Shown piece after piece: positions 1,914 to 21,998 of a stretch of DNA of 29,197 nucleotides. The notes under the pieces are model-generated. The model did no database searches and was not told the origin of the DNA. It saw only the letters and a program-made list of their open reading frames with translations. The DNA is taken from IMG/VR virus record IMGVR_UViG_3300027974_000120, positions 1 through 29,197 of that record. The stretch is one strand, 5' to 3'. The stretch comes from a virus. The position numbers and the translations under genes are program-made. Position 1 is the stretch's first letter. Every line of letters starts with the position of its first letter.

Positions 1914-2079
1914 GAAAGGGCAGGGGTTCTTTATCCCCTGCCTAGACACCGAAGCCATGAAAGAGTGGGGCTTGAAGAAAGCCTTCTCCTTGCGGATACT
2001 AGACGCCCACGCTAGCGTGGGCATCCTTGACGGCAAGCTTGGCGTTATGTTTTACCGGAAGCCTCAATCCGTTTCATAG
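1873..2079 (+). CDS. small phage protein of unknown function, overlapping the DUF927 gene
   Basis: A 68-residue protein starting with ATG at 1873, 41 bases before the end of the DUF927 gene and in another frame. The sequence has a motif (PWEKVEKGQGFFIPC) of the sort seen in small phage proteins that begin 'PW..v..G.sFF.P', which supports a real gene rather than a chance frame. No catalytic motif, membrane segment or signal peptide is visible. No convincing ribosome-binding site precedes the start, so it probably depends on translation of the upstream gene. Its 3' end overlaps the end of the giant convergent gene by 35 bases. Two perfect inverted repeats lie within it. Function unknown. Confidence 0.6.
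   Translation: MKYSSLRLPWEKVEKGQGFFIPCLDTEAMKEWGLKKAFSLRILDAHASVGILDGKLGVMFYRKPQSVS
1918..1943. other. perfect inverted repeat (hairpin) just after the DUF927 stop
   Basis: GGCAGGGG (1919-1926) and CCCCTGCC (1935-1942) form a perfect 8-bp stem around an 8-nt loop (TTCTTTAT). A G-T wobble could extend it by one pair. It starts 5 bases after the DUF927 stop codon and lies inside the next coding frame. No T-run follows on either strand, so it is not a textbook intrinsic terminator. It could slow transcription or protect the 3' end of the replication message. Confidence 0.45.
2005..2022. terminator. 18-bp perfect palindrome at the convergent gene junction (possible bidirectional terminator)
   Basis: GCCCACGCTAGCGTGGGC is identical to its own reverse complement over 18 bases and is GC-rich. 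It lies 22 bases past the stop codon of the giant - strand gene, a usual place for a terminator, and just inside the 3' part of the small + strand gene. Neither side has a T-run, so intrinsic termination would be atypical. Alternatives are a protein-binding site or an mRNA-stabilising hairpin. Confidence 0.4.
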
Positions 2080-5000
2080 CCGCTTCAAATTTCTCCGACA
2101 GGGCTTGACGGGCTTCGTCAATCCTATCTATGCGAGCACGCTTCTCGGCGCCTGTCATCTTCTCCATACCCGTTATACGTTCCTCATCTGAGCGCAAGCG
2201 TCCCATCTGCGTCTTGTACTGCGCGGCTAATTTTGCAGCCACAATCTGTGTGCGGTTGTCTGCCAAAAATTCTCTGGCTTCTTCCACGCGTCCTTGCTTG
2301 AGCATGCTGTCGTAAGAGTTCTTGGCTTGCGTAGCTTCCGTGGCCATCCGATACATTACGTCGGCATCAGCCCCACCAAACTTCTTCTGGAACGAGCTAC
2401 CAATAAAGGGCAAGTCTGTCACACGCTTCTCAGGCGCTTCGCCTTTGCTCTCCTTGCGGAACAAACCATCAGCAGCGCCCGCAATAATTAGCGGCAACTG
2501 ACCAAAGTAGCCTGTGGCAAGATGCTCAATCTGCACAGGAGACAAGAAAGGTAACGCCTTACTCATAGCCTTAGCCGCCTCTGTTGTGGCTGCTCCAAAG
2601 CGTTCTTGTGGCGTCTTGCTCTCCATACGAGCCGACTCAATGTTGTTGCCGCTGAAGAAGTTCTTATTGGTAAAGACTTCAAACGCTGGCTTGATAGCCT
2701 GCGGCATAAACTTAGACGAGTAGCCCGGTACTGACTGTAAGAACATATCGCGCAGACCGTCAAACTGTTGCTGGCCATCGGTCTCGGCTTTCATAGCGTC
2801 AACTGCCGCTACAGCCAACGAGAAGAACCAGCCAGCCTCGTAGGGAATTGGTAGCTTGAACGGCTCTTCAACGCCCGGCACAGGGATGAAGAAGTTGCTG
2901 TACTTGTCCTTTGGCTTGGCACGTTTGAAAGCTTCGTCGTCCTCCATCGCCATGGCGTAGACCACGCCTGTAGCAACCAACAGCATGGCGTTGTTGAAGA
3001 ACTTCTGCTTGATCTTCTGCTGCTCTTCAAAAGGCATCTGGCCTGTGGCGGCTTTATACAGTACGTTTAAGCCTTGGATCTGCGCATTGAAGAAGGGGAT
3101 CAAACGACTGGCGTACTGCACTGTGGGCGACAGACCGCGCTTGTAGAAGTTCATAGACTCCATCGTGGCCATATCAGCCTCGACTTCAGACAATCCGTTC
3201 TTACGTGCGTTCTCGTACACCAACGCGCGGGTGGCAGCATCGGCACGCATCGCGGCTCTGTCAAGCCCCGCAAACAACTGGTCAACAGCGCCTTGGTTGT
3301 TACCTGCCAACTGCAAAGCCATCTTGGCAATGTCGTCTGGGTCGCCTGTGAAAATACCGCTCTGGACTAAGCCACGTTTAATAAGCTCTTCGCTTGCCGC
3401 GCTGGTGCCGCGACTCATCCGAACAAACTCACGCCCAGCTTTGGCCACCGCTGTAAGAGGCCCGTAGTTTAGACCGCCCGTAAACGATGCCGCCATTGGG
3501 TCACGAACCAACTGACGCAAAATATAGATTGGCATCCGAGTAACGCCAGAGCGCAAGATGTCGCCGGCTATGCCGCCAATCTTTAAGAACGCTGGGAGCG
3601 TCAGGTGCGCGCCTTCCAAACTCTTCACAATCAACTCGGCAGGGATACCACCCATGATGGTGTCATCGGTCTTAACGCGTACCCAGCGCTCGCCTGTATC
3701 TTCAGGGTCTTTGGGATCTGGCTCTTGGTTAAAACGAATAATGTCCGCGCCAGCTACACCTTTTCCTTTGTGGATCGGCATGGCGTTGGTTGGCTTGCCT
3801 TCTTTATCCAAGGGGCCCTTGCCTGCACCAACAGATTGGAACGCATAGGCTACGTTTCTGGCGGCTAAGTTAGTCAGAGCCTTGTCTGTAATAAGCAACG
3901 TGTTGCGTGGAAGCGACTCTGTCAGGGGCAGGATGCGGGTCTCGCCGCCCTTGAGTTCTGCCAAGTAGGGCTGGTATCTAACATCGCCGATGTTGATAGT
4001 AACCTCATCACTAAAGACAAGATCAGCCATCCCGTTTTCACGGACGCGATAGAACGGAACATAGTCACCGTCTTTAAGCAGCTTGGCTGCCGTTTCTTTG
4101 GGTATTGCGCCAGTCGAAGCCAAGAACTTAATCAAGCCTGCGTTGTACGCGTTGTACGTACTTCGCACAACTTCCAAAGCTTTTTTTAGTTCTGGGTTTG
4201 CGTTGACGTCAGCCATAGCCGCTTTGAGGTCTGCCTCGGTAATCCCCAGATCGCCCAAGTCAAGCTTGGCTAAACCCTTGTTAGCCGCACGTTGTGCGAT
4301 CATGTACGTGGTAGCAAGGTCAACGCGGCCTCTGGCGTTGCCGCCCGGGATGCGCCCTATGGCGTCAAAGACATCCTTGGCACTGTTCTGTCCCGAAGAC
4401 TTAATACCAAAGAAACCCTTCTCGTCTGTGTACAGTTCCATTGGGCCGTTCATCAGCGTGGAGCTAACGACAGCCATCTTCTGGTCAGCTTTGGTCACGC
4501 TGTACATAGCCTGCACAAAGTTCTTGGTGTCCCCCATTTCCTTAGCGCCAGCCTTCAGCGCTTCGCGCAAACCAGCACGCATATCCACCAAGTTCATCTC
4601 GGTCTCAAGCGCAATGTTTCTACCAAGGCGGTCACTGAAAGACTTAGGCTGTGCCACAACGCGGCTAGCCAGATCAGTCAGCGCATCGTCTGAACCAAAC
4701 TGTGCCTTGCGGGAAAACAACAGACCTTCAGACTGACCGACAGGTTGCAGATTCATTGCCAGTATTTCAGGAGCTTGGTCAATGTAAGCGCGTTCGGTAA
4801 ACTCACCATCTTCGTTGCCGCGTTCAATGACGTCAATTCCAGCGGCTTTCAGTTCTTCTGTTGTTTTTTTGATGCCCAATTCTCTGCGCATTTTGTAAAA
4901 CAAACTGTTGGCAAAAAAACGATCGTTGCCTTTGTACGTAGACTTCGTACCGTATTTTTCAAGCAACGCGTCAAGTTGAGGGCGCTCACCAATCGTCATG

Positions 5001-8000
5001 ACTGAGTCAACCCTATAGACTTTTTCACGGGGGATTGCGTCAAGGGAACGATACAGTTGTCCTGTCTTGGGGCGTTCTGTTAACCCTTTAATTTTTCCAA
5101 TATCGAGTGTTTGCGCAGCTTTTAATTGGTTTTTTGCTATTTGCAATTCTTCACGGGCGCTCTCAATGCTGTCAGGCTTGGCTTTTCTTTTTTCTCGGCT
5201 TGCCAAAGTCTCTGTTTGATCTTTAACATTTCGTTCTGCTTTTTTAAGCAGTTGATCCAAATACCTCCTTGCGCCTTTGTTGTTTTGCGGGTCAAGTGTT
5301 CCGCCCTGCGCAACGTCCTGCAAATAATTTGTTAATAAATTGCTCTCATAAATACTCTGCAAATCCGCCACCGGCGTAACACGCGGCCTGTTGGGATCCA
5401 TGTACTTGGCATCCATAGACCTATAGTCTTGATACGATAAGGAGCCGTACCCGGTCTCGTTTGCGGCTTTGCCAAAGGGTATAGCATGCTGATAATACTC
5501 AGCGTAAGTTTTGTCGGGAGTAGTGTACGGACCCGCGCCAATCGAGTTCTCGTTTGCAAAACGTAAATCAAACATGCCCTCGCCAGCACCCGCATACTTT
5601 GTGTCAAACGCCGTAAAAGTAGCATCGCTGCCGTGCCATGTACCGCGAATCTCCAACTGGGCAGCACCATAAGCAAGATTAACCAAGTCGCCGGCTTTAA
5701 GGTTCTTTGAATCAATACCAAAAGCAGAAAGCGCTTTTTTCAGCGTGTCGATTACCAAGCGTAACCAGTTTGCAATCGGTGAACCTTTAGAGCCCAACGC
5801 TGTTGGCCTAACGCCTGCTTTGATCGCTTCTTCAACTGCGTAAGCTAGCAACTCATCATCAAACTGTTCTTTGGACGTTTGCGCAGCTTCCACACGGGCA
5901 AGCGCAGCCTTAGCCACACGCGCTTCTACGGAGTTATCATTTAACTTAGACCAGTTGCGTACAGCGTTGACTAAGCTTTTGTATTGCCCAGCATTGAAAA
6001 GGTTTTTAAAACCAAGGTGCACACCGACTTCGTGTAGCAGTATGCCTAAGCCGTCCCCCTTGGCAATGTTGTTGGCAAACATAAACGCTTTGCCTGTCCT
6101 AGGATCTACAAAAGCTTTAGCGTCTGTAGGAATGTCGCCGGCTTCTGGTGGTTTGGCTCGTTTCACAGTGTACGCATCTTGCAGATCAGCAAAACTAGCA
6201 CTGTCTAAAAACTCTTCAACACTGTTGAATAGCTCAACGCGGCCTTTAGTAAGCCCCGCCCCACCCAGCGCAGTGTCAATTTCTTTCTGTAATTCCGCGA
6301 CACTCAAGCCGTTAACAGCCGCGCCTCGAGAAAACTCCAGTCCGCCTTGCTCATCAAAGTAAACATCTTTCACCGCACCTTCTGCGCGAGTGGTTTCGCC
6401 GTATGCTTCTTCTTCAGTCACCTTACGACGGCGGCCGCGAGTTTTGGTTTCTTTCTCAACGGGTTCAGCAGCGGCTTCTTCTGCGGCTCTGATGTCAGCT
6501 TCGTTGGTTGACTGATACAGCGCTTTCTTAACGCCTTCAAGTTCTTGACGGACAGCACGGCGCTCGTTCTCGTAGTCTTCAACTTCTTGTTTAGCGTTTA
6601 CGATCTCTTCAAGCGAAGGCAGGTTGCTTCGGCCAGTAGCAGGGCGCGCTGCTCTTGCTTGTAGTGTAGTGAGCCGATCTTTAGCGGCTTCTAACTGGTT
6701 GGTCAGCTCTTCGTCACGGCGCTCCAAAATTACTTGAAACTCTGCTTGACGCTCGGCTTCAATTGCTGCTAGTTGTGCTTTGGTCAAGTTCTTCTCACCA
6801 GCCGCACGTTTTTCTGCCAGTGCGTTGGCCTCGGCCACTGCTTGCGCCACTGATGGTGCTTTGATATTGCGCTGCTCAACCAACGGCTGTTTGGTAACGC
6901 CCGGTGTGCGTTTAGACTCTGTTGTACCAGCACGCAGTTTACTTGGAGCGCTTGTAGCGCGACGTGCGCCAGCAGATACACGGCCTTTTAGTGCAAGGTC
7001 TAACTTGGCTTTTTCTTCTGTGCCAACAGATATCTCTGTATTAACCTTGTCAATTTCTCCGTTTAGACGTGCAACAGCTTTGGTTTTACCTTCCTTGATA
7101 GCGTCGTCACGCTCGGCAGTCAGCGCCGCTAAACGATCTGTTGCTTTGCCCAGCTCTTGCACTTGCTCAATGTACTGGTCAATTGCGTCTTGTTCTTCTG
7201 GCGTAGCCTCCCGTACCGCGGGCGCTTCGGCTAGGTTAGTTCTAAGCGGCATGTTGCGTGCACGCATAAAATTAATTGCTTCTTCAAGAGATATTTTGCG
7301 TACAGACAAACGGCTTTGGAGACGGATAGCTGCCCCCAAACCTTTGAACGCTTGTACGTTTTGCTCACCGCCTACATAGGAGCCAGACTTCTTTCTGGCC
7401 GCAGTCACTTTGGCCGTAGCTTCGGCCAACTGCTTGTCGATACTGCCTAGTTCTAGAATCAAAGACAGCAAAGGCTTGTTGTACAACTCGTTATTGTATT
7501 TAACTTCGCTTGCCGCATCGGCAGTAAGCCCACGCTCACGGGCATCACGTTCGGCAGCACCAAGTGCGCGGATTTGCACACCCTTACCAAAACCGGACAT
7601 TGCCACGTTCCAACGCCTTGTGCGTTCGTCAGAGATTTGTCTCTCCAACTGCTGGACATTTGCGTCTTTAGCGCCTTGCACGGCTTGGGTTTTGTCCGCC
7701 TCGGCCTGACGCACCTTGTTGTCAGCTTCTGTAATTTCTGCTTGCGCTGTGCGAATTGTTTCCTGCAGCCTTGCAATTTCATTTTTAGCAGACTCGTTGG
7801 ATTTTTCTAGCGGATCGACTGTGGCTTTGAGTTCAGCTAAACGCTGTTCACCCACCAACACTTTAATCTGTGTACGCACTAAATCCAGAGCGGCTTTAGT
7901 CTGGGTGTATTCGGCTTTGGCTTCTTCATGCAACGCAATCAAATCGTCCAACTCTTTGAACATTGCAATTTCTGCGGCGCCGCCTCTGGCGCGTACGCCG

Positions 8001-11000
8001 GATCGATTGGCTTCTTTAATCAGCTCTTCTTTAGCCTGCTCGTACGATTTAATACGGGCGTTTAGATCGCTGACGCTGAGCTTCAGATTGTTCATCTTCA
8101 GCGCAAGGTTGTCTGTGTTGGTTTGGAACGAAGCCAACTCACCGTTTTCTTTTAAGAACTTAGTCCAGTTCTTAATTTTGCTCATACGTGCAGTAGTGTC
8201 TTTGCTTTCTTTAAGCAGTTGTTTCAAACGCGGCAAAGCTCTGGCCAAGAACGCACGCACAGGAGCCAAATCTTTCTCAGACTGCTTCATGTCTTGTTTT
8301 AGCTTACGAACGTACGGGCTATTCATGAAGCGCTGGAACGACTCAACGTCAGGTCTTGCACCAATATCTAGGCTTGGGCCAGCTTCAATACCACGGCGCT
8401 CAGCTTTCTGTACGCGACTACGCTCATCGGCTGCACCAAACAAAGGCAACTGACCAGCTTGCTCATCACGAACAGTCTCAGCCAGTTTAACCAACTGCTC
8501 CAATTCATTTTGCAAAGACAGCGGTGCGGCTTCAGCACTCTTACCGCGAATCGTTCCGGACACCAGTACTTGTTTGCCAGTGACGGGGTCGGTGCGGTAC
8601 ACAGGTTTGTTAATATCCTGCGCACGTTTCTCAACCGTGGCTCGACCGGGCACACCTTGTGTGCGTTCCTCTTCTTCTGGCTGGGCTACAAAGCCGGGCA
8701 ATTTGCCGGGTTTGCCTGTACTCTCAAGACGCTCCCGTTGCGCGTTCTGCTCCATCTGAGACACAGACGCGGCTTGTCCGGGGGTAGCGCTAGTCTCTCC
8801 CTGCTCGTACTTAAATGCTTCGGTTGGCGTGGTAGTGCTAGCCTGTGCTTGGGATTCTTTTGTTGGTGGGAATGTCTTCAACAATGTAGGGCGATCAGCG
8901 CCTCTTCGTGCCACACCCTCTTCACCATTCTCAATCTTGGTCAGTTGTTGGTCGAGCAGTGTAAGGAAGCCCTGCGACTGCGACACATTCTTAAGCAGCC
9001 CCCTGTCTGCAACAACTTCACCCGCTATATTTTCTTGATTGGCTCTGCCCGACGCTTCTTGTTTGAGCGTCATGTCTGCTTCAGGAATTACCTGCTCAGC
9101 GCGGCGCAAGAAGGCCGCAGCTTCTGGAGACAGCTTGTATGTGGACAGCACTCGGTCAATACGATCACGCAAAGATTCGGCAGTAAGTACTTCGCCAGTG
9201 CCCTCGGCTCGTGGGTGCAATTTAAACTCAGCACCGGGTACGCGTCTAAGTACTCGCTTTTGCTCGCCTTCTGGAACAACTTCTTCGGCTGTAGGCAGTG
9301 TGCCTTCTTCTAAGGGTATACCCTGTAATCGTTGCTGCAACTGACCAAACGCAGCGGATGTCGATGGTGGAGCTTCTTCGTTTCCAAACAACCCCAAGTT
9401 CTCCGTCATAGGAGACGGAGCGTTTTTCATGCGCTGCAGTGCCTGCATCTCTGGCGCCAGCCTAACTTTACGGTCTGCTTCTTCAGCAGCGGCTTGGTCT
9501 GCGGCACGGCTTTGTTCAAGTGCGGCTTGCTCTTCCTCTTCAACAGTTTGCAAACGCGTCTGGTTAGGTTGCGCTGCTTTTACTGCGTTTGCGGCACGAA
9601 GTTCTTCTAACCGCTGTTCAAGACTAGCAAAAACCAAATTCTGCTGGCGCTTGGTTAAACCGGGCAAATAAGCGCGTAGCTGCAAAGTTTGCTGCGCCAT
9701 AGCAGGGTCGGTCATTAAATAACCAACGTAATCTTTAGCGGCTAGTTCTGGTTCTTTTTCATTAGACAGTTGCTGGTCATTAGCCAACTGTATTTGTTTC
9801 GTAGCGTAATCCACTACTTTTTGTTTTGGATTGGCTATCTGCTGTTCATAGTAGCCTTCAAGATCGGGCGCTGCGGCTTTTGTTTTTGCCGTTGAGACTT
9901 CGCCGGTTTGTTCCAACATATAGTCAAACGGAGACATGCCAGCAACACGCGCTTTCTCTGCCTCTTGCTCACGCATTGGTTTAGTGCGGCGGTACTCAGG
10001 AACAATTTCTTGCAGTTGTTTTTGCAAAGCTTGAAGCGAGTCTTGCGCGTCTTTGTACTCCGCTTTCTCAACAGGCGTAGCGTTAGCGCCGGGCTTTTTA
10101 AGCGCCGTCTTCTGCGTTTGAAACTGCGCTAGTAAATCATCGTACTGTTTGCCAATATCAATAGCGTACTTGGGTGTCTGTTTTTCAGCTTCCAGAGCCT
10201 TTGCGTCAGCTTCTTCTTCAGCTTTCTGTTGGGCAGCAGTTAGTTGTTCTTGTTGCAAACGCAATGCACGCTTTTGTTGTTCGGCTTCTTTGGCTTTCTC
10301 TTCAACTTCTGCACGGGCACCAGAGCGTTCAGACACGCGACCAACGGCGCCTAAAGGCGCAAGCAAACCTACTTGATAAGCGGTTTCGCCATACTCTTTC
10401 ATGGCGTCAGGAGATGTCAAAGACAGCCCTGCTTGGTAACGCTCCAACATCTGCTGGGCAATTTCTGTGGGGATCTCGGCTAACGCGCCTGTGGCCAGAC
10501 CTTTAGACAACGTAACGGCTAGGCGTTCTTCGGCTAACTTGGCAACCTGAGCCGCGCTCCGTCCGAGTAGTGCCTCGGCGGGGATACCAGTTAATTTACT
10601 GACAATTTTGCCGCCAAACGGAATAAACGTACCGGCTACATCGAGCGCTCCAGAGGGAATCGCTGTGCCCACAGCTTTGCGCATATCAATACTGATAGGC
10701 TCTCCGGCACGTTCCTGTTCCGCAGCTTGACGCTCTACGTTTTGACCCAAAGCTTGTGTAGTACCGGAAGCCAACGCGCCTAGAGCACCGCCAACCAACT
10801 TGCCCTTTGTACCAAACGCACCGCCAAGCATGGAACCCAAACGGCCACTGGCGGCAAGAGACGCAATGTTTGCGCCTTGCTCTGCAATGGCTCCGGGGAT
10901 TTGACTAACGGCTTCGCCTGCGGCTGGCAGGATACCGCGCTCTTCGTAGAGCTTCTTGACTTTCTCAAAGTCTGCGCCTTCTTCGTAACGGGAACTAATG

Positions 11001-11257
11001 TCTCGGCTACGGGCTAGGCCTGCTTTAGCGGCTTCTTCAGCGTCACCTGTCAGAGATGCGCCAGCGGTGCGGCCAGAGGAAATTAAAGACTCAAGACCCT
11101 TGCTTGCTTGGGCAAGTATGCCTTTTTTACGTGCAGGCTTCTCGGACTCAAAAGCGTCTGGGTATCTTTCTTTAGCCAGCGCCATGGCTTCGTCATACCC
11201 CATGCTGCTGGGAACTTTAAAGGAAGTGCCGTCTGGAAGGGGTAGGTATTTAGCCAT
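2045..11257 (-). CDS. giant virion-type polyvalent protein: zincin-like peptidase + ART-like + LPD38-like domains
   Basis: About 3070 residues. I chose ATG at 11257 because it gives MAKYLPLPDGTSFKVP, a common N-terminal motif of giant phage proteins; a GTG at 11278 would add seven unlikely residues. No clear ribosome-binding site precedes it. In order: the N-terminal motif (5-36); a Gly/Ala-rich, possibly membrane-active stretch (about 100-270); long Glu/Gln/Lys/Ala-rich coiled coils (about 320-1600); a peptidase-like segment with LLHEVGVHLGF (H1742, E1743, H1747), followed by a DELLAYAVEEA helix; an ART-like domain from TWHGSDATFTAFD (W1874) to AYIDQAPEI (about 2165), carrying a charged helical insertion; and an LPD38-like C-terminal region (about 2570-2900) with RQLVRDPMAAS and a hydrophobic helix near 2750. 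Polyvalent proteins are thought to enter the host with phage DNA. The ejection role here is inferred. It is the last gene of the late operon and has its own likely promoter. Confidence 0.85.
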   Translation of the reverse strand: MAKYLPLPDGTSFKVPSSMGYDEAMALAKERYPDAFESEKPARKKGILAQASKGLESLISSGRTAGASLTGDAEEAAKAGLARSRDISSRYEEGADFEKVKKLYEERGILPAAGEAVSQIPGAIAEQGANIASLAASGRLGSMLGGAFGTKGKLVGGALGALASGTTQALGQNVERQAAEQERAGEPISIDMRKAVGTAIPSGALDVAGTFIPFGGKIVSKLTGIPAEALLGRSAAQVAKLAEERLAVTLSKGLATGALAEIPTEIAQQMLERYQAGLSLTSPDAMKEYGETAYQVGLLAPLGAVGRVSERSGARAEVEEKAKEAEQQKRALRLQQEQLTAAQQKAEEEADAKALEAEKQTPKYAIDIGKQYDDLLAQFQTQKTALKKPGANATPVEKAEYKDAQDSLQALQKQLQEIVPEYRRTKPMREQEAEKARVAGMSPFDYMLEQTGEVSTAKTKAAAPDLEGYYEQQIANPKQKVVDYATKQIQLANDQQLSNEKEPELAAKDYVGYLMTDPAMAQQTLQLRAYLPGLTKRQQNLVFASLEQRLEELRAANAVKAAQPNQTRLQTVEEEEQAALEQSRAADQAAAEEADRKVRLAPEMQALQRMKNAPSPMTENLGLFGNEEAPPSTSAAFGQLQQRLQGIPLEEGTLPTAEEVVPEGEQKRVLRRVPGAEFKLHPRAEGTGEVLTAESLRDRIDRVLSTYKLSPEAAAFLRRAEQVIPEADMTLKQEASGRANQENIAGEVVADRGLLKNVSQSQGFLTLLDQQLTKIENGEEGVARRGADRPTLLKTFPPTKESQAQASTTTPTEAFKYEQGETSATPGQAASVSQMEQNAQRERLESTGKPGKLPGFVAQPEEEERTQGVPGRATVEKRAQDINKPVYRTDPVTGKQVLVSGTIRGKSAEAAPLSLQNELEQLVKLAETVRDEQAGQLPLFGAADERSRVQKAERRGIEAGPSLDIGARPDVESFQRFMNSPYVRKLKQDMKQSEKDLAPVRAFLARALPRLKQLLKESKDTTARMSKIKNWTKFLKENGELASFQTNTDNLALKMNNLKLSVSDLNARIKSYEQAKEELIKEANRSGVRARGGAAEIAMFKELDDLIALHEEAKAEYTQTKAALDLVRTQIKVLVGEQRLAELKATVDPLEKSNESAKNEIARLQETIRTAQAEITEADNKVRQAEADKTQAVQGAKDANVQQLERQISDERTRRWNVAMSGFGKGVQIRALGAAERDARERGLTADAASEVKYNNELYNKPLLSLILELGSIDKQLAEATAKVTAARKKSGSYVGGEQNVQAFKGLGAAIRLQSRLSVRKISLEEAINFMRARNMPLRTNLAEAPAVREATPEEQDAIDQYIEQVQELGKATDRLAALTAERDDAIKEGKTKAVARLNGEIDKVNTEISVGTEEKAKLDLALKGRVSAGARRATSAPSKLRAGTTESKRTPGVTKQPLVEQRNIKAPSVAQAVAEANALAEKRAAGEKNLTKAQLAAIEAERQAEFQVILERRDEELTNQLEAAKDRLTTLQARAARPATGRSNLPSLEEIVNAKQEVEDYENERRAVRQELEGVKKALYQSTNEADIRAAEEAAAEPVEKETKTRGRRRKVTEEEAYGETTRAEGAVKDVYFDEQGGLEFSRGAAVNGLSVAELQKEIDTALGGAGLTKGRVELFNSVEEFLDSASFADLQDAYTVKRAKPPEAGDIPTDAKAFVDPRTGKAFMFANNIAKGDGLGILLHEVGVHLGFKNLFNAGQYKSLVNAVRNWSKLNDNSVEARVAKAALARVEAAQTSKEQFDDELLAYAVEEAIKAGVRPTALGSKGSPIANWLRLVIDTLKKALSAFGIDSKNLKAGDLVNLAYGAAQLEIRGTWHGSDATFTAFDTKYAGAGEGMFDLRFANENSIGAGPYTTPDKTYAEYYQHAIPFGKAANETGYGSLSYQDYRSMDAKYMDPNRPRVTPVADLQSIYESNLLTNYLQDVAQGGTLDPQNNKGARRYLDQLLKKAERNVKDQTETLASREKRKAKPDSIESAREELQIAKNQLKAAQTLDIGKIKGLTERPKTGQLYRSLDAIPREKVYRVDSVMTIGERPQLDALLEKYGTKSTYKGNDRFFANSLFYKMRRELGIKKTTEELKAAGIDVIERGNEDGEFTERAYIDQAPEILAMNLQPVGQSEGLLFSRKAQFGSDDALTDLASRVVAQPKSFSDRLGRNIALETEMNLVDMRAGLREALKAGAKEMGDTKNFVQAMYSVTKADQKMAVVSSTLMNGPMELYTDEKGFFGIKSSGQNSAKDVFDAIGRIPGGNARGRVDLATTYMIAQRAANKGLAKLDLGDLGITEADLKAAMADVNANPELKKALEVVRSTYNAYNAGLIKFLASTGAIPKETAAKLLKDGDYVPFYRVRENGMADLVFSDEVTINIGDVRYQPYLAELKGGETRILPLTESLPRNTLLITDKALTNLAARNVAYAFQSVGAGKGPLDKEGKPTNAMPIHKGKGVAGADIIRFNQEPDPKDPEDTGERWVRVKTDDTIMGGIPAELIVKSLEGAHLTLPAFLKIGGIAGDILRSGVTRMPIYILRQLVRDPMAASFTGGLNYGPLTAVAKAGREFVRMSRGTSAASEELIKRGLVQSGIFTGDPDDIAKMALQLAGNNQGAVDQLFAGLDRAAMRADAATRALVYENARKNGLSEVEADMATMESMNFYKRGLSPTVQYASRLIPFFNAQIQGLNVLYKAATGQMPFEEQQKIKQKFFNNAMLLVATGVVYAMAMEDDEAFKRAKPKDKYSNFFIPVPGVEEPFKLPIPYEAGWFFSLAVAAVDAMKAETDGQQQFDGLRDMFLQSVPGYSSKFMPQAIKPAFEVFTNKNFFSGNNIESARMESKTPQERFGAATTEAAKAMSKALPFLSPVQIEHLATGYFGQLPLIIAGAADGLFRKESKGEAPEKRVTDLPFIGSSFQKKFGGADADVMYRMATEATQAKNSYDSMLKQGRVEEAREFLADNRTQIVAAKLAAQYKTQMGRLRSDEERITGMEKMTGAEKRARIDRIDEARQALSEKFEAAMKRIEASGKT

Positions 11258-13483: not shown

Positions 13484-14719
13484 TTAGCCCATGTTATAGA
13501 CAGCTAAGTCCGCCAACCCAGCAGGCGCACTGTCAACAGCGCCGCCTTTAGCAAACAATTTACTAGCGCCCAGCGCTGCTGTGCCAAGACCCGCCACTTG
13601 AGACACCGCAGAAGGTGCTGCTTGGTAAATCGTATTTGATTGCTGGGTCAATGGCAAACCGCGGAGCATGTCAGACATAAAGCCCAACTGCTTGTACGGG
13701 TAGTTCTGGTAGCCCAAGTAGTCTTGGTACTGATTGTTCAGCATGTTCTGGACTTGCTGTTGTTGCTGTGTGCCGTACTGGTTCTGCAACTGATTGATGC
13801 CCACTTGTTGGCCAAACTGGGTCTGGCCTAAATTACCCAACTGACCCGCGCCTGTCAGCGCTGTTTGCAAGCCTTGAAGTCCCAGACCTGCACCGTACTG
13901 GCGTGATTGCTCAGCTAATTGTTGTGCCTGCATTAACTGCTGTTGGTTAGCCAGTTGCGCCTGTAAATCTTGCCCTGCGCCTAATTGTTGTACACCCAGC
14001 TTAGCCTGTAAGTTCTGTCCGCCAACTTGAAGACCTGCTTGTTGATTAGCTAGGTTAGCTTGCAGACGCGCTGCTTGCTCGGTGTTAAATTGCTGCTGGC
14101 CTTGCTGAAAAGCGGCTTGCTGACCCTGCGCAAAGATGTCATTTTGCAGACGGGCTAAGTTGTTTCTTGCTTGCCCACGCATTAGATAGTCGCCACTGCC
14201 ACCAAACGCACCAGCACGAGCAGCCTGAGCACCTTGGATTTGAGATGCAATATCGCTTTGCCGTTGCGCATCCGCCTGCTGGCGTGCCACCACATTTGCC
14301 ATGTAAGGCGACATGTACGCTTCTTGCGTACTAGGGCGTGTGAAAGACTCCGTTGTAACCCCGTGTGAGGGATCCATCTGGTAGTAGTTTAGGCTTGGGT
14401 TCTGTACCGTGTAGGCAGAGAACATCCCGGGGTTGTAAGCGCCGTAGTTAAGTGCTGCTTGAGAAGCCAAGCCAGTTAGGTCTGTAGCTTGTTGCAGTTG
14501 CGGGGCAGTTTGCATACCCTGCGCGCCTTCAAAGGCTTGCTGCTGCATAGGCGTGAACTGAGCGACACGCTCCCCCATGTACTGCATGTAGGGGTTTTGA
14601 GTTGTGTCGGTTACCGCGGCCGCTTTGCCTAGTAAATCCTGTACGTACGGCTTGGCATAGTCAGGAATGGCCGTCTGGGACGACGATATTTGGGAAACTT
14701 GTACTTGTGGTTCAGCCAT
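13484..14719 (-). CDS. Gln-rich virion protein (probable ejection/internal protein)
   Basis: 411 residues. The ATG at 14719 has a good ribosome-binding site (TAAGGAAT) that overlaps the TAA stop of the upstream gene. The N-terminal 160 residues have mixed composition and a YMQYMGERVAQFTPMQQQAF stretch. Residues about 185-330 are strongly Gln/Ala/Leu-rich with a degenerate LQAxLAxQQ repeat, predicting long helices. The C-terminus has LFAKGGAVDS, a short form of the Gly-rich motif found in the two neighbouring proteins. No catalytic residues or signal peptide are visible. Proteins like this occur beside tail and ejection genes in short-tailed phages. A role in the DNA-ejection channel is inferred from position and composition. 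Confidence 0.68.
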   Translation of the reverse strand: MAEPQVQVSQISSSQTAIPDYAKPYVQDLLGKAAAVTDTTQNPYMQYMGERVAQFTPMQQQAFEGAQGMQTAPQLQQATDLTGLASQAALNYGAYNPGMFSAYTVQNPSLNYYQMDPSHGVTTESFTRPSTQEAYMSPYMANVVARQQADAQRQSDIASQIQGAQAARAGAFGGSGDYLMRGQARNNLARLQNDIFAQGQQAAFQQGQQQFNTEQAARLQANLANQQAGLQVGGQNLQAKLGVQQLGAGQDLQAQLANQQQLMQAQQLAEQSRQYGAGLGLQGLQTALTGAGQLGNLGQTQFGQQVGINQLQNQYGTQQQQQVQNMLNNQYQDYLGYQNYPYKQLGFMSDMLRGLPLTQQSNTIYQAAPSAVSQVAGLGTAALGASKLFAKGGAVDSAPAGLADLAVYNMG

Positions 14720-14729: not shown

Positions 14730-17700
14730 TTAAGCGGGAAGATATTTGTCAGCACGGCTATTGGCCGCTACTTTATTTTTGCCTGTGGTTTTGCCCCGTG
14801 CACGTTGCACACGATCCATCATGGCGTACAGTTTCTTAGCGCCAGCTTCAGTTGAGCCATTACCCAATTCAGACACGATGCGTGCAGGTACTACAAACTC
14901 ACCATCGGCAAGGCGTGCGGGTTGCTGTTTAGCGCCAATTGTTGCAGGGATGCTATCAGACACGCCATCACCGGGGCCTCTGAGCAAACGACCACCATCA
15001 GAGTAGCTACCCAAGGAACCTAGCCCGCCGCCTACTGCATAGCCAGTCATTGGCATACCGCCCATGGCATAACCCATCAGACCCCCCGCGGCTGCGCCCC
15101 CACTTTCTCGTTTGTCATTTTCAGAACCTCCACCACCGGCTGCTGCTGCTGCTGCGGCTTTATCAGCTTCAGTTTTAGTGGCCGAAGCTTTCTTGGCTTT
15201 AGCGTCACGCCATTTAGCGGCAACTGTAGACAGCGGTACACCCGTAGCGGAAGCAATTTCTTCAGGAGTAAGGTTGTTTTCAATCGCCCAATCGTATGTA
15301 GCGCTGTCTGCTTGGCCTTGGTTGGCTTTAAAGTATGCGGCAATCTCGTTTGGCGACATCAAGTAGTTAGTGCCGCCAGTTGGATCATTGTATTTGGCTA
15401 CATAGTCTTTGTTAAGTCTATAAGTTTTTGCTACTGGGTCAAAAATATATTGCTGATTTGAGTTGCTTGGGTATCCAAGCGTAGCTTCTGCGTACGGGCG
15501 CGCAATCTCACCAACGCCAGACTTGGTCGGGTATGCGCCTTTGCCCATCAGGAAGTTGTACGCAGCCTGCGAGTCACCAGTCATCTTGTTGTACTTGGCG
15601 TCGTAGTAGCGGTTCTTCATCTGCTGCGGAGAAAGCGGTGTCGCCCTAGATGCGACATCAGGACTCAAATTAATTTTGTCCATAAAGTTGGCGTGCTCGA
15701 CATCTGTAGCGTTGGGGTTTTGAGTAATCCAACTGCGATAAAGATCAAGCTGTGCATTTTGGGCAGCGGTTGTAGCGGCTGCTTGTTCTGCAATTTGTTG
15801 TTTGGCCAGTGTTATTGGTGCTACTGTAAACCCGGCTGTGCCGCCGTAGTCAATGATTGGGCCTGTTGTGCCTGTGGTTGTCTCAGAACCAACCCCTGTA
15901 ATTTTGCCTTGGCCAACTTGCGTACCAATAACGGCTGCTGGCCCAGTTGTGCCAACGTATGTACCATCGACTGTAATTTTGTTTGCTGCGGCTGCGGCAT
16001 TAGCGGCAGCTTTATCTGCGGCGGCTTTGGCAATTGCATCAGCTTCTGCTTTAGCTCTTGCTGCTGCGGCAGCGGCTTCGGCGGCAGTTTTACCTTCTGC
16101 TAACGCTTTTAACCTAGCAGCTTCTGCTGCGGCTGCTGCGTCTCTTGCCGCTTTTTCTGCGGCTGCTTTTGCTGCGGCCTCTGCTGCGGCTTTAGCGGCT
16201 GCTGCCGCTGCCGCGTCATCCTCTGCTTTTTTCTTAGCTGCTGCCGCTGCTGCCGCTGCATCATCGTCTGCTTTTTTCTTAGCGGCTGCGGCTGCGGCTG
16301 CGGCTGCGGCATCTGCGGCGGCTTTATCCCTAGCGGCTTTGTCTGCGGCTGCTTTGTCTGCGGCGGCTTTGGCGGCGGCATCACGGGCATCAAAAATCTG
16401 TGATGAAGTCTGGCCAGTAGCACGCAATACATCGGCATCTGTGATGCCGTATGTGCCCATCCCAGTCTGTGCTTGCTCACGAGTCAAATTAGGGTTAGCA
16501 AGCGCGGTGTTAATGTTTTGGCTGAGTCCTGCCAAGCCGCCAGCCGTACCGGTATCACTGTGAGTAGCCGCATATTGCGCAGCGGCAGATAAGCCAGAAC
16601 TACCCAAAGCATTTGCTAATGCTTGGTTTTGCAGTGCAACGTCAGAAGTTTGCGCTAAGAATTGAGGTGCTGTTACTGTTGGCGTAGCTGCCTGCTGAAC
16701 AAAACGTTTTTCGTAATCAGCTTGCTGGTTCTGTGTGCCAGTAATCCGCGCAATATCGGCTGCAGACACGTTGTATGTCTGCATGTCTGCCGCAATTTGT
16801 TTATCAAGTGCTCCAGAAGCTAACTTAGCTTGGTCAAGCCCTGAAAAATAATTAAATACGTCTTGGTCGCCAACAAGCATACCGTCAGCGTATCCGGGCA
16901 CACCGCCATGCGCTAACGCAACAATACCGCCTTCAGCAAAAGGCTTGAATGCGGGTGTGCCGTAATTCTTTGCAGGCACGGGGTTCAGCCTACGATACTG
17001 CCCGTTGGGGCCATAAATAAACTGGTTGATTGTGTCGTTGCCTTGAATGTTTGGTTGTTGCGTGGTTGTTGGAACCATCATGTCAGCCATGATTGGCGAT
17101 GCGGCAGCGGCAAGGTACTTAAAGTTATCTTTTGCAAACTGCATGGGATCGTTGGCAACAGCCTTAGCCCCGGCAGAAGCCATATCACCAAAAGATTGAG
17201 TTGCCGGATTAGCGTTGCTTTTGAGAAATTCATTAAACGCGGTGCCAGAAGAGCCGTCAGTAGCAGTGGCTGCAACATCGCCAAACGCCTGCCCTAAATT
17301 TCCTGAAGAAGACCCCGCTAAAGCTTCAGACAACCCCGCACTTGTACCCGCGCCCATTAGACCTTCGGCTAATCCTGCTCCACCATACGCACCCAATCCG
17401 GCCATGAGGCCGCGAGATAAACTACCAGTAGCCAAAGCCGTTGCGCCCCCCACTGCAACACCCGTACCCACAGCCGCACTAGTACCCAATGCACTACCAA
17501 GCGCGGTTCCAATACCGGGGGCAAAATAGTTTAAAGCTGCGCCTGCCAAAATAGGCAAAATATTGCTCAAAAAGCCGGCTTCAGGAAGTCCTGTATCGGG
17601 GTTAATTGTCAACGAGCCGCCGTGTTTCATGGCCAAGGCTTGCAGCCCCGCAACTTCTTGGGGGGCCATGTGTACCAGCATTGAATCTGGGCCTCGGCCA

Positions 17701-17738
17701 CGGGAGGCCATGTCTGTGGCTAATGCGTGAAGGCTCAT
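14730..17738 (-). CDS. large Ala-rich virion protein with repeated HTH-like motifs
   Basis: 1002 residues. The ATG at 17738 is preceded by a good ribosome-binding site (GAGAGGC). The N-terminus includes MLVHMAPQEVAGLQALAMKHGG, then Gly/Ala-rich hydrophobic segments (about 55-150) that could insert in a membrane. Around 265-287 lie two Gly-rich motifs (FAEGGIVAL, HGGVPGYADG). Residues about 448-588 are an extreme Ala/Lys/Asp/Glu coiled coil of TolA-like composition. Four short motifs resembling helix-turn-helix units begin near residues 322, 430, 689 and 821. The C-terminus has ARLADGEFVVPARIV and LGNGSTEAGAKKLYAMMDRV, a conserved ending I associate with phage virion proteins. A role as an internal or ejected protein is inferred; no enzyme motif is visible. 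Confidence 0.72.
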   Translation of the reverse strand: MSLHALATDMASRGRGPDSMLVHMAPQEVAGLQALAMKHGGSLTINPDTGLPEAGFLSNILPILAGAALNYFAPGIGTALGSALGTSAAVGTGVAVGGATALATGSLSRGLMAGLGAYGGAGLAEGLMGAGTSAGLSEALAGSSSGNLGQAFGDVAATATDGSSGTAFNEFLKSNANPATQSFGDMASAGAKAVANDPMQFAKDNFKYLAAAASPIMADMMVPTTTQQPNIQGNDTINQFIYGPNGQYRRLNPVPAKNYGTPAFKPFAEGGIVALAHGGVPGYADGMLVGDQDVFNYFSGLDQAKLASGALDKQIAADMQTYNVSAADIARITGTQNQQADYEKRFVQQAATPTVTAPQFLAQTSDVALQNQALANALGSSGLSAAAQYAATHSDTGTAGGLAGLSQNINTALANPNLTREQAQTGMGTYGITDADVLRATGQTSSQIFDARDAAAKAAADKAAADKAARDKAAADAAAAAAAAAAKKKADDDAAAAAAAAKKKAEDDAAAAAAAKAAAEAAAKAAAEKAARDAAAAAEAARLKALAEGKTAAEAAAAAARAKAEADAIAKAAADKAAANAAAAANKITVDGTYVGTTGPAAVIGTQVGQGKITGVGSETTTGTTGPIIDYGGTAGFTVAPITLAKQQIAEQAAATTAAQNAQLDLYRSWITQNPNATDVEHANFMDKINLSPDVASRATPLSPQQMKNRYYDAKYNKMTGDSQAAYNFLMGKGAYPTKSGVGEIARPYAEATLGYPSNSNQQYIFDPVAKTYRLNKDYVAKYNDPTGGTNYLMSPNEIAAYFKANQGQADSATYDWAIENNLTPEEIASATGVPLSTVAAKWRDAKAKKASATKTEADKAAAAAAAGGGGSENDKRESGGAAAGGLMGYAMGGMPMTGYAVGGGLGSLGSYSDGGRLLRGPGDGVSDSIPATIGAKQQPARLADGEFVVPARIVSELGNGSTEAGAKKLYAMMDRVQRARGKTTGKNKVAANSRADKYLPA
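15975..16395 (-). repeat. Ala-codon-rich low-complexity tract (coiled-coil segment)
   Basis: Runs of GCN alanine codons alternate with Lys, Asp and Glu codons, encoding blocks such as AAAAKKKADDD. The DNA is a degenerate repeat of GCTGCGGC-like units. It produces long spurious open frames on the + strand. The tract could expand or contract by slippage. Confidence 0.8.
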
Positions 17739-17772: not shown

Positions 17773-18423
17773 TCATGCTGGGAGCGCGGACACAAATGAA
17801 AGTGTAGCTACAACGGATTGTGTAGTTGGACGGGTGGGGCTTGTTCCAGCGGGGTATGCTTGGATAGTTACAGCAGCGTTTGTAGTTGACCAGTAAATTT
17901 GAATGTAATCGTCAGCATTCATGGACACATAGTAGTTCCAGCCAACAATCTCGTGGGCTTCTTCGCCCGGAGACGCGCTCTTTCGTGCGGGTATAGACAC
18001 ATAGCCTGTCGAGCCTGCAATATCTGTGCCGTTTTGCTTGAGCCAAATGCTGATGTCTTGAATCTGAGTGTCTGTGTTTTGGAACTGCGTACTGAACTGC
18101 AAGTTGTATATGCCTGCGTATGCCGCAGTAATTTTGGAACTACTTATACTTACACTGTTAGCAAAGTCAGTAGTGTTCAGTGTCATCAACGTAGCTGTAT
18201 TAGCTGTAGTTGTTTGGTCTACACTGCTGGAAAACGCCCCGTACGGAAACGCTAAATACCTACCGCCCGTGTTACCTGTAAGTTCTGTAAGCGCGTTTTG
18301 TAATTGGTTAAAGTAAAGACGCAAAACGTTTGTAAACTGATCCTGATAACGGCGCTCGTACGCATCTGTACCCAAAGGCAAGTTGGGTGTTGCGGGGTTA
18401 ATGATCCTGTTTTGTGTTGCCAT
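17773..18423 (-). CDS. C1q/TNF-like jelly-roll virion protein
   Basis: 216 residues starting with ATG at 18423. This ATG overlaps the TGA of the upstream gene by one base (TGATG), a usual sign of coupled translation; the TTG one codon upstream is less likely. The N-terminal 55 residues are helical and carry a YERRYQDQFTNVLRLYFNQL segment, probably an assembly or anchoring helix. From about residue 85 the pattern AAYAGIYNLQFSTQF, a SIWLKQNGTDI segment and MNADDYIQIYW fits a C1q/TNF-like trimeric beta jelly roll, as found in phage receptor-binding or decoration proteins. Its place after the hub-like gene suggests a tail or neck appendage. The fold is pattern-based and the precise role is unknown. 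Confidence 0.65.
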   Translation of the reverse strand: MATQNRIINPATPNLPLGTDAYERRYQDQFTNVLRLYFNQLQNALTELTGNTGGRYLAFPYGAFSSSVDQTTTANTATLMTLNTTDFANSVSISSSKITAAYAGIYNLQFSTQFQNTDTQIQDISIWLKQNGTDIAGSTGYVSIPARKSASPGEEAHEIVGWNYYVSMNADDYIQIYWSTTNAAVTIQAYPAGTSPTRPTTQSVVATLSFVSALPA

Positions 18424-20558
18424 CAACGTCTGCCGTCAGGTCTGATGTCTATGCGAGGAGCGCCAAGCTGCCAGCAGGTGTTGATCTGGTTTGAGCTAAT
18501 CTTAAAAATCATCTGGCGGCCGCGCAAACGTGTAAATATCATGCCCGTAAATTCTTCGGTGATGTAGTATGCGGATGACTTACGTACCGGCTGAGATGCG
18601 TCACTCGTAACGCCAGAGCCTGAGTTGGCTAAACCATACAACTCCATAGTCACAGTGGGTTGAACACCTGTCGGAGAAGTCGTGGCATTTTCAAAGGTCA
18701 GATCGGGGAGGACACGCCACACAAAACCAAAGTTGTGACCATCACCAATGTCAAACTCAGACGAGCTAATGTAAGCGTCAATTGCAACAGGAGTGCCGGT
18801 CGTGTCGTCATTCAAACCTGTCTCGTGGTTAATCAAGTTACCTGTGAGCGTGTTGGGGAAATAGTTTGCCGCAATTGGATATGACTGCAAGCCGGAGTCC
18901 AACCATGCCGTACGTGACATGGTGCCGTAGTACCAGATTTTCTCGAGATAGTTATAAATAACGTACCTGTCGATGTTTGACGAATTGGCTGAGCAATAGA
19001 ACCACCAGACTTCATTGAAGCCTTCGTTTGTGCCGGAAAATACTTGTAAATCCTGCTCTTGGTTAAGGTCACCAAACACGTAGCGGCGCAGGTCACAGTT
19101 AAGCGTTTGCACACGGCCATCGTAAGAGTAAAACTTGTCTACGCCCATCCAGTACACAATACCCGAAGCAATCACAGCCGCGTTAGGGCTCATGATAGAG
19201 ATGTTGTCACCAAGAAGTTGCGATGCCCATACGTACGGGGGGCCAAGGTATTGGAGCGAATATATGCTAACGTCGGTAAATACCACAAACTCTTGACGAG
19301 TCTGTACTACAGCTACAATTTCAGAGCCGTGGGATAGTCGGGTAAACCCTGCTTGGTTAGTTGGGTCTGGCGTCCAGTTATAAACATCGTCTTGCGCTGA
19401 CCATCGAATTAGCATGGGGTCAAGTAGGCTGGAGCCGTAGTCGTTACAACCAAAAGCAATTAAGAAGCGAGAAGCGTCCGACACGGTTATATTGTTCTGC
19501 ACAGTCGGTACATCAACAATTGTAGACACTGTGCCCGTACCTGAACTAGATGTATTGACTTCGTTACCAGCGTTGTCAAGTAAGTTAAACGTAAGCCCAT
19601 TAACTTGGAACACGTAATACGTAGTACCCGCAGTCACGCCTGTTGGTAGCGACCCGCCAGAGAACTGAAGCGCCGCGCCTTCGGTATAAAGTATGGTGGA
19701 GGTCACCACAGTTGGCGAAGCGTTTGTAAATGATACTGTACCACCAAGCGAGTTAAGCAGCACACCACGGGTGTTGACGCCATTATTGGCTGACCAGTAG
19801 TAGATGCCGCCTGTGCGTGGGCCGTAAACTAAATCTTGGCCATAATTAATTTGGTTCCACAAGCGGAGAGAAGATGTGGATGTAAGGCCATAACCCCACG
19901 TACCAATCGTGCCGCCAGCAGGGGGAGGACTACCCCAAGTACCAGCGCCCCAGCCCACAAGCGGAACAGGAATAGCTGGGCCGACATTGATCTGGTATGT
20001 AGCTACAACAGAAGCACCGCCGCCGGGAGAACCTGCAATAGCCGTTGCATTCGGAGTTACTGAAATTACAATCGTGTAAGTATTAGCGTCAAGCACCGTG
20101 ACTTGAAACTGCTGGTTAAGCACCGCAGCCGTAACGTTTGTACCACCACCGCCAATAGTTGCAGCACCGCTAAATGTCACAAAATCGCCCGTTACGCAGC
20201 CGTGGTTTGTGTCTGTAACAGTTACAGTAGTAGAAGCTGTTAATGCAAACGGATTGTTATTGATTGTAGAAGCTGCACGGACAGGCGTGATGTCATAGTA
20301 AATACCGCCTTGGTTGATGTAGAACTTAAGGTTTGTGCCAACGCCAATCAGATTGTCGCCGCCAAGCGTAACCCAATTCCACAAAGAACGGCATACGCCT
20401 TGGAACGAAGCGGCAGACAGCGGCTCCCAACCACCCAGCACTTCTGGATTACCTTGACGGAAGCGGATTTTGTTGCACTCGTACCAACCGCCTTCTGTGG
20501 TGTACCTAGTGTTCTCCCGGTTGACGCCCGGCTTAAACAGAATTTTTTGTAATGGCAT
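18423..20558 (-). CDS. hub/packaged-DNA-stabilisation-like structural protein with Ig-like insertions
   Basis: 711 residues starting with ATG at 20558, three bases after the lysozyme stop. The N-terminus has FKPGVNRENTRYTTEGGWYE and RFRQGNPEVLGGWE, a signature common in phage hub or stabilisation proteins. The body is beta-rich and resembles a propeller (VVFTDVSIYSLQYLGPPYVW, VYWMGVDKFYSYDGRVQT). Two Ser/Thr/Gly-rich segments (about 98-190 and 275-350, the second with LPTGVTAGTTYYVF) look like inserted Ig-like domains. Probable role: the tail hub or tubular protein that seals the head or carries fibres, comparable to P22 gp10 or T7 gp12. I could not verify homology to either. Its start region is coupled to the lysis genes and its end to the jelly-roll gene. 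Confidence 0.65.
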   Translation of the reverse strand: MPLQKILFKPGVNRENTRYTTEGGWYECNKIRFRQGNPEVLGGWEPLSAASFQGVCRSLWNWVTLGGDNLIGVGTNLKFYINQGGIYYDITPVRAASTINNNPFALTASTTVTVTDTNHGCVTGDFVTFSGAATIGGGGTNVTAAVLNQQFQVTVLDANTYTIVISVTPNATAIAGSPGGGASVVATYQINVGPAIPVPLVGWGAGTWGSPPPAGGTIGTWGYGLTSTSSLRLWNQINYGQDLVYGPRTGGIYYWSANNGVNTRGVLLNSLGGTVSFTNASPTVVTSTILYTEGAALQFSGGSLPTGVTAGTTYYVFQVNGLTFNLLDNAGNEVNTSSSGTGTVSTIVDVPTVQNNITVSDASRFLIAFGCNDYGSSLLDPMLIRWSAQDDVYNWTPDPTNQAGFTRLSHGSEIVAVVQTRQEFVVFTDVSIYSLQYLGPPYVWASQLLGDNISIMSPNAAVIASGIVYWMGVDKFYSYDGRVQTLNCDLRRYVFGDLNQEQDLQVFSGTNEGFNEVWWFYCSANSSNIDRYVIYNYLEKIWYYGTMSRTAWLDSGLQSYPIAANYFPNTLTGNLINHETGLNDDTTGTPVAIDAYISSSEFDIGDGHNFGFVWRVLPDLTFENATTSPTGVQPTVTMELYGLANSGSGVTSDASQPVRKSSAYYITEEFTGMIFTRLRGRQMIFKISSNQINTCWQLGAPRIDIRPDGRR

Positions 20559-21762: not shown

Positions 21763-21998
21763 ACAAGTAAATCAATCTCACGTTTCAAGTTGTTGATCTG
21801 AATGTTCAGTGTGACCTGACGCATCCTATAAGCATAAATCTCGTACTCATATTGGTGGAACTTCTTGATTGTTTTATCTACCTGCACCTGCAAGGCGTGT
21901 TCGGCATTTTGCTTTTCCACCTTTTTTATAAATGCTTCTTGTTGCACCATAGCTTGAGGCTGGACTACCGGATACCACTTGTCGTAGCTGACCTTCAT
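21759..21998 (-). CDS. small coiled-coil protein in the lysis cluster, function unknown
   Basis: 79 residues, joined to both neighbours by ATGA overlaps. No membrane segment or signal peptide is seen. From about residue 20 it is highly charged and helical (AFIKKVEKQNAEHALQVQVD, then YRMRQVTLNIQINNLKREID), suggesting a coiled coil. The position beside holin genes suggests a lysis-associated or cytoplasmic helper role, but it lacks the inner-membrane anchor expected of an i-spanin. No function assigned. Confidence 0.55.
   Translation of the reverse strand: MKVSYDKWYPVVQPQAMVQQEAFIKKVEKQNAEHALQVQVDKTIKKFHQYEYEIYAYRMRQVTLNIQINNLKREIDLLV

What the first reader, a model, noticed from the sequence alone, without database searches (positions are those of the whole stretch)
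2045..11257. One gene of about 9.2 kb fuses peptidase-like, ADP-ribosyltransferase-like and LPD38-like regions
Seen: a single uninterrupted frame of about 3070 codons with an HExxxH signature, an ART-like segment and an LPD38-like end, joined by more than a thousand residues of coiled coil. Known: polyvalent proteins are thought to be delivered with phage or plasmid DNA and to act on host defences or host proteins. Inference: this is a virion-borne multi-effector. Between about residues 40 and 1640 I recognise no domain, so new effector domains may be hidden there.
Basis: partly seen in the sequence, partly recalled or inferred. Interest (0 to 1): 0.75.

Follow-up and report, generated by a model that had tools for sequence, protein, structure and literature searches.

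The report
Phage giant protein with self-excising cassette
A freshwater phage makes one 3,070-residue, probably injected protein whose middle module, a metal-dependent peptidase plus a probable effector, is bracketed by two copies of the same short peptide; that peptide changes whenever the peptidase type is swapped, which suggests that the peptidase cuts itself and its cargo free.

Summary
The gene is real: one frame on the MINUS strand, ATG at 11257, stop at 2045, 3,070 aa. It is the last gene of a phage structural operon. LPD38 is confirmed (Pfam E 9e-32) and so is an HExxxH zincin motif. The ART is only weakly supported, and the 'thousand residues of coiled coil' is overstated. It belongs among phage polyvalent proteins (Iyer 2017); a distant LPD38 protein is virion-borne (phage JC1).

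What is new came from comparison with relatives. All 32 distinct full-length relatives carry one zincin upstream of a conserved C-terminal core, in three interchangeable types. Two types each have their own PAIR of short boundary peptides, one before the zincin and one at the core junction. Type A (window): [FLY]S[RKV] at both ends in 28/29 versus 0/45 others. Type B: [FYR]R[TSV] at both ends in 26/36 versus 0/38 others. On the core phylogeny the junction peptide follows the zincin type in about 15 of 15 independent pairs (p 6e-5). In the window both sites (LEFSRG, LLFSRK) lie in low-confidence linkers of the AF2 model.

Best explanation, unproven: they are cis-cleavage sites at which the zincin excises a peptidase-effector cassette. 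Processing by such zincins was proposed before; where they would cut was not, in the papers read.

The parts
2045..11257 (-). whole gene, 3,070 aa from ATG 11257 (alternative GTG start at 11278)
9458..11257 (-). N-terminal block (residues 1-600), kept in most relatives; begins MAKYLPLPDGTSFKVP...YPDAF, then Gly-rich stretch about 100-320
6341..9457 (-). variable, mostly helical stretch (residues 601-1639), replaced in several relatives; low-confidence linker at its end (1592-1647)
6323..6340 (-). boundary site 1, LEFSRG (residues 1640-1645), putative cleavage site upstream of the peptidase
   Evidence: pLDDT under 50 in the model
5654..6322 (-). zincin-like metallopeptidase domain type A (residues 1646-1868)
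6017..6034 (-). HEVGVH motif (HExxxH), residues 1742-1747
4778..5653 (-). ART-like effector segment (residues 1869-2160): WHGS...GAGPY...YAEYY, with a helical insert
   Evidence: weak
4703..4726 (-). boundary site 2, GLLFSRKA (residues 2178-2185), putative cleavage site at the junction with the C-terminal core
   Evidence: pLDDT under 50 in the model
2048..4702 (-). conserved C-terminal core (residues 2186-3070)
2402..2938 (-). LPD38 (PF18857)
13484..14719 (-). nearby gene, homologue of a DNA ejection protein family (phrog_4287)
18423..20558 (-). virion structural gene of the same operon (phrog_3287; a relative is annotated stabilization protein)

Best explanation
The gene encodes a phage polyvalent ejection protein. 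Its N-terminal block and C-terminal LPD38 core form the constant carrier, which is packaged and ejected (inferred). Between them sits an exchangeable cassette: site 1 (LEFSRG) - zincin - ART-like effector - site 2 (LLFSRK). The zincin is inferred to cut the two flanking sites in cis. Because the C-terminal core is the likely packaging part, cutting is more likely inside the capsid or after ejection than before packaging. It would release the peptidase-effector module and separate the N-terminal part from the core. The scissile bond is not known; cutting just before the aromatic or leucine would suit thermolysin-like zincins (own knowledge, inference). Shown: the cassette, its swapping as a unit, the paired peptidase-matched peptides, their lack of predicted fold in the window. 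Inferred: cleavage, its timing, ART activity, and virion location in this phage.
For: (1) Every one of 32 distinct full-length relatives has one recognised zincin motif ahead of the core: HEVG[VA]H (A), HE[VIA][ATV]GH (B) or HExxHA (C). (2) Motif [FLY]S[RKV] in both flanks: A 28/29, B 0/36, C 0/9; [FYR]R[TSV] in both: B 26/36, A 0/29, C 0/9; background 3-7% per 34-aa window. (3) The two ends of one protein resemble each other more than permuted ends: 17.24 versus 15.59, sd 0.31, 0/20,000; also within A (40/10,000) and B (229/10,000). Variants co-change, e.g. L085 MLSRG / MLSRK, L112 FYSRG / LYSKG, L137 EYSVG / LFSVK. (4) On a core tree the junction motif follows zincin type in 14.9 of 15 independent pairs, median p 6e-5. 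(5) Window versus L003: 89% identity before site 1, 30% between, 95% after site 2; LLFSR|KAQFGSDD becomes VTYRT|KAQFGSDD. (6) The zincin-to-junction distance in type A varies from 145 to 609 aa with different cargo, yet the junction peptide stays. (7) All three codons vary at the wobble position within and between sites, so selection is at protein level. (8) Both window sites are in pLDDT<50 segments, one before the zincin part and one after the ART part. (9) Distant DarB-like proteins show [FY]S[VIMA]-type peptides on both sides of their zincin: BcepIL02 AFSV -98 and RFSV +133, plus KFSV before LPD3; JC1, LASTA and Skulduggery similar. (10) Packaging of such a protein: JC1 gp69, MS.
Against: No cleavage has been seen. 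N4 gp50, which has an HExxH domain, is packaged uncut (cited in PMC5512222), and no degradation of the recombinant full-length protein was reported (PMC12633501); but N4 showed no clear pair. Type C zincins mostly lack a convincing pair (3259/10,000). The Bcep22-like counts are only slightly above composition overall (4-6 seen, 2.7-3.6 expected), so there it is position that counts, and POI1126 (upstream) and Parlo (downstream) lack one of the two expected sites. Because the cassette is swapped whole, motif-peptidase linkage alone could be hitch-hiking; the end-to-end similarity rests on only a few independent motif classes. The zincin fold was not confirmed by structure search (searches were filled by helical hairpins).
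Confidence: 0.6

Rival explanations
1. The boundary peptides are only linkers or domain caps that travel with each cassette; recombination in the conserved flanks exchanges whole cassettes, and no cutting takes place there. The zincin may be inactive or act otherwise.
For: Sites 1 and 2 lie inside the exchanged unit, so linkage to the zincin type is expected. Serine codons at the motif are all TCN (58/58, background 64%), so each site may simply be old and inherited. N4 gp50 is uncut although it has HExxH.
Against: Does not explain why the two ends of one cassette share the same peptide, why the peptide differs between cassette types and co-varies within types, or why wobble bases change freely while the residues stay.
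Confidence: 0.22
2. The sites are cut, but by another protease: a phage head-maturation protease or a host protease.
For: Phage maturation proteases cutting many packaged proteins are established for other phages (e.g. the gp245 prohead protease of SPN3US, PMC10052503 abstract). The window is a partial genome, so such a gene cannot be excluded.
Against: The motif follows the type of the zincin in the same chain, in about 15 independent pairs; a trans protease would have to be swapped in step.
Confidence: 0.08
3. The zincin is itself an effector that cuts host proteins, and self-processing is absent or incidental.
For: Listed as a possibility for polyvalent zincins (PMC5512222); the zincin is swapped like an effector.
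Against: A zincin motif is never missing in the 32 distinct full-length relatives, and it always sits upstream of the core whatever the cargo: an obligate rather than optional part. It also leaves the paired peptides unexplained.
Confidence: 0.1

Closest known systems
Phage polyvalent proteins with MPTase, ART and LPD38 domains (Iyer et al. 2017, PMC5512222)
   Same: Giant multidomain protein in the late region; zincin including the HExxxH variant; LPD38 is listed there as phage-only; processing of the chain by the zincin is proposed in general terms
   Different: Paired peptidase-matched boundary peptides and the cassette bounded by them were not found in the passages of that paper searched for motif, cleavage site and linker; the ART-like part here is a divergent, insert-bearing form
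DarB-like giant proteins of Bcep22-like podoviruses (BcepIL02 gp70, JC1 gp69)
   Same: Last large gene of the virion module, zincin followed by the C-terminal LPD38 region (LPD38 reported for JC1 gp69), [FY]S-type peptides around the zincin; JC1 gp69 was detected in virions (PMC9144972)
   Different: 4.5-4.7 kaa with transglycosylase, DNA methylase-like, helicase-like and LPD3 parts; zincin of HEAFH type; core similarity of BcepIL02 gp70 to the window is not significant by phmmer (E 0.15), though LPD38 proteins including one of Ralstonia phage Alix are found by fold
N4 virion RNA polymerase gp50
   Same: Giant ejected protein with an N-terminal domain, a central activity, an HExxH subdomain and a large helical C-terminal part
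   Different: No RNA polymerase domain was recognised in the window; N4 shows no clear paired motif and is packaged uncut
phrog_18222 / uncultured Caudovirales LPD38 proteins (e.g. A0A6J5PFI7)
   Same: C-terminal core; 56% identity in the fold-search alignment to the best BFVD entry
   Different: No function assigned; no cassette analysis was found

Membership tests
Phage polyvalent proteins | Very large protein joining unrelated domains, with an LPD domain | tested here: met
   3,070 aa; PF18857 LPD38 E 9e-32, 111 bits against a cut-off of 27; zincin motif
Phage polyvalent proteins | Located with late or virion genes | tested here: met
   phrog_3287 virion structural protein, tail-fibre family, DNA ejection protein phrog_4287 upstream in the same direction
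Phage polyvalent proteins | Packaged and delivered with the DNA | not testable with these tools
   No virion data for this phage; JC1 gp69 (LPD38) is in virions (PMC9144972)
Zincin-like MPTase of polyvalent proteins (HExxxH set) | HExxxH and a downstream helix with glutamate | tested here: met
   H103 E104 H108 and E163, E170, E171 of A2 invariant in 8 sequences; type A and B profiles match, 95%
Zincin-like MPTase of polyvalent proteins (HExxxH set) | Zincin fold | tested here: inconclusive
   Model mostly at pLDDT 70-90 over the domain, but structure searches were dominated by helical hairpins
ART-PolyVal (PF18760) | Score above Pfam's cut-off | tested here: not met
   No hit in the window protein; divergent relatives in the same slot 12-17 bits against 31.2, L046 100 bits
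ART-PolyVal (PF18760) | ART fold and catalytic residues | tested here: inconclusive
   WHG and GxGPY invariant, profile match over the first 56 residues to the L057 group; the model is poor over the start of the segment
Bcep22-type DarB-like proteins | DNA methylase-helicase dyad | tested here: not met
   No such Pfam or NCBIfam hit in the window protein; BcepIL02 shows methyltransferase and SNF2-type helicase matches
N4-type virion RNA polymerase | T7-like RNA polymerase domain | tested here: not met
   No Pfam hit; the space between the ends is variable and mostly helical in composition

The most novel reading that the evidence does not exclude
Phage polyvalent proteins are cis-processed polyproteins: each zincin type recognises its own short peptide, placed at both edges of an exchangeable peptidase-plus-effector cassette, so that a phage can swap effectors by recombination and the newcomer brings its own scissors and cut sites.
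Probability: 0.5. Interest if true: 0.82.

Novelty: new variant of a known kind. Interest (0 to 1): 0.63.

Why it matters
Iyer et al. proposed that zincins process polyvalent proteins but left open where they cut and whether before or after delivery. The matched peptide pairs name candidate cut sites to within a few residues in dozens of phages. That makes the question directly testable, predicts which proteins are processed (types A, B and Bcep22-like) and which may not be (N4-like), and gives a boundary marker for finding unknown effector cassettes in other giant phage proteins.

Tried and rejected
Pfam on the window protein and on ten unique relative segments found almost no known domain besides LPD38. 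PDB sequence searches with the core and zincin profiles gave only chance hits (Argonaute E 0.28; none). Foldseek/VIA on the 891-aa model found only helical hairpins; the absence of zincin or ART rows there is not evidence. The C-core has no PDB match at E <= 0.001 but many LPD38 viral matches. Phage DNA search, near mode: none; zincin A in cultured phages: none; GTDB genomes: none of the pattern matches was confirmed, so no prophage carrier was found. Considered and set aside: the boundary peptides as DNA recombination repeats or a target-site duplication (wobble bases differ, and the motif changes with the cassette while the flank stays).

Full report
WHAT IS THERE. The gene lies on the minus strand, ATG at 11257, stop ending at 2045, 3,070 aa. 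Residue numbers below count from that ATG (the stored P0001 starts 7 residues earlier). The window is a whole virus record of 29,197 bases, probably a genome fragment. The gene ends an operon of virion genes read in the same direction: tail-fibre-type proteins, lysozyme, a virion structural/stabilization protein, and a DNA-ejection-protein homologue. A primase/helicase-like gene faces it. Pfam recognises only LPD38. The HEVGVH motif is at 1742-1747.

RELATIVES. A scan of IMG/VR gave 63 loci, in contigs of up to about 65 kb. No close phage was found in the GenBank phage collection: cultured phages match only over part of the C-terminal third at about 25% identity, and not at all in the first 1,926 residues. 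No zincin relative was confirmed in the GTDB genomes, which fits a lytic phage but does not prove it. Aligned with its relatives the protein has a conserved N-terminal block (about 1-600), a middle that is replaced wholesale in different relatives, and a conserved core from about 2186. The core matches other viral LPD38 proteins by predicted fold and no solved structure at E <= 0.001.

THE CASSETTE. All 32 distinct full-length relatives have one recognised zincin motif upstream of the core, in three types: A HEVG[VA]H (11, the window's own near-duplicate L002 among them), B HE[VIA][ATV]GH (12), C HExxHA (9). A and B are related by profile (95%). Between zincin and core there may be little, an ART-PolyVal domain (L046, E 2.6e-28), LPD23 (L125, E 2e-20), or divergent ART-like segments as in the window. 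Comparing the window with L003, identity is 89% over the 300 residues before site 1, 30% between the sites and 95% over the 300 after site 2: zincin type and cargo were exchanged as one unit.

THE PAIRED PEPTIDES. In type A proteins a peptide of the form [FLY]S[RKV] stands just before the zincin domain and again at the junction with the core; the window has LEFSRG (1640-1645) and GLLFSRKA (2178-2185). Type B proteins have mostly [FY]R[TSV] at the first place and [FYR]R[TSV] at the second. In 74 dereplicated proteins from the scans, the A motif occurs at both places in 28 of 29 A proteins (the 29th, L109, has its first copy just outside the counting window) and in 0 of 45 others; the B motif at both places in 26 of 36 B proteins and 0 of 38 others; background 3-7% per 34-residue window. 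The motifs were chosen after looking at part of these data, so a motif-free test was added: the best BLOSUM 5-mer between the two ends of each protein gives 17.24 against 15.59 for permuted ends, 0 of 20,000 permutations reaching it. Within type A 40 of 10,000 and within B 229 of 10,000 reach it; type C is not significant. Shared ancestry inflates such numbers, so the junction motif was also tested on a tree of the core with the junction left out: in about 15 independent pairs that differ in zincin type A versus not-A, the motif differs in the same direction in 14.9 (median p 6e-5). Examples of joint change within type A: L085 MLSRG and MLSRK; L112 FYSRG and LYSKG; L137 EYSVG and LFSVK. Codons for F, S and R vary at the third base in both places and between the two places of one gene, so what is kept is the peptide, not the DNA. 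Serine is always TCN there (background 64%), which fits long inheritance of each site.

A DISTANT CASE. The Bcep22-type DarB-like giants are a far branch (phmmer of the window's C-terminal part against BcepIL02 gp70: E 0.15). BcepIL02 gp70 has FSV at 3308 (before the part where LPD3 is reported for JC1), 3520 (98 before the zincin motif) and 3751 (133 after it). JC1, LASTA and Skulduggery carry [FY]S[VMA] at 69-120 before and 128-133 after their zincin motif; POI1126 has only the downstream and Parlo only the upstream one of this form. The total number of such tripeptides is only slightly above composition, so the evidence there is their position. JC1 gp69 was found in CsCl-purified virions with 51 unique peptides (PMC9144972). 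Type C proteins of the HEGTHAAV kind show [FY]AR pairs in some cases (L011, L277, L281). N4 gp50 showed no clear pair.

STRUCTURE. AF2 of residues 1300-2190 with 21 relatives has mean pLDDT 61. Both FSR sites fall in segments below 50 (1592-1647 and 2161-2190), while most of the zincin part (about 1649-1868) is at 70-90; the beginning of the ART part is poor. Structure search of that model was filled by the helical hairpins and tested neither the zincin nor the ART fold.

INTERPRETATION. The simplest account of two equal peptides at the edges of a unit that contains a peptidase, differing from unit to unit with the peptidase type, lying in linkers, and kept at protein level, is that they are the peptidase's own cut sites. 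Processing by zincins in polyvalent proteins was proposed by Iyer et al. (PMC5512222), who cite uncut packaging of N4 vRNAP and cutting of P1 DdrB before packaging; I found no report of matched cut sites in the papers searched. Since the constant core is the likely packaging part, I favour cutting in the capsid or after ejection. Steps not shown: zinc binding, cleavage, timing, ART activity, presence in this phage's virion.

VERDICT. The observation beyond it, paired peptidase-matched boundary peptides around an exchangeable cassette, is statistically solid for types A and B. Its meaning as a cleavage system is likely (0.6) but untested.

Noticed in passing
L031, L012, L042, L047, L127, L128, L131, L135, L136 (e.g. 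L127 residue about 2015 of its frame): Right after the HEVGAH zincin some relatives carry a conserved MSRRTFLRGAVAAVGG-like stretch that resembles a Tat signal peptide inside the giant chain.
   Followed up: partly
L062:7166-8941: A weak YkuD L,D-transpeptidase match (PF03734, E 0.0042, below cut-off) in the variable part of a relative.
   Followed up: no
window 22799-24865 and 24875-27142: Two adjacent paralogous proteins with DUF7483 (E 7e-81 and 1e-86), the second with an fn3 domain; the first matches a tail-fibre family.
   Followed up: no
window 14730-17738 (minus): 1,002-aa protein with long Ala/Lys/Asp low-complexity tracts; a 236-aa antisense ORF (15853-16563) over it looks like a by-product of composition.
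   Followed up: no
L142, L143, L145 (no LPD38 core matched): Proteins with a related zincin but another C-terminus show [FY]SK at -92 and about +350 from the zincin motif (L142 and L143 also at -267), suggesting the pairing reaches beyond this family.
   Followed up: partly
L070 (Phage DSL-LC04) 21245-24451: A 1,068-aa protein annotated DNA transfer protein stands at a similar place after the stabilization-protein gene but is not detectably homologous to the giant's core.
   Followed up: no
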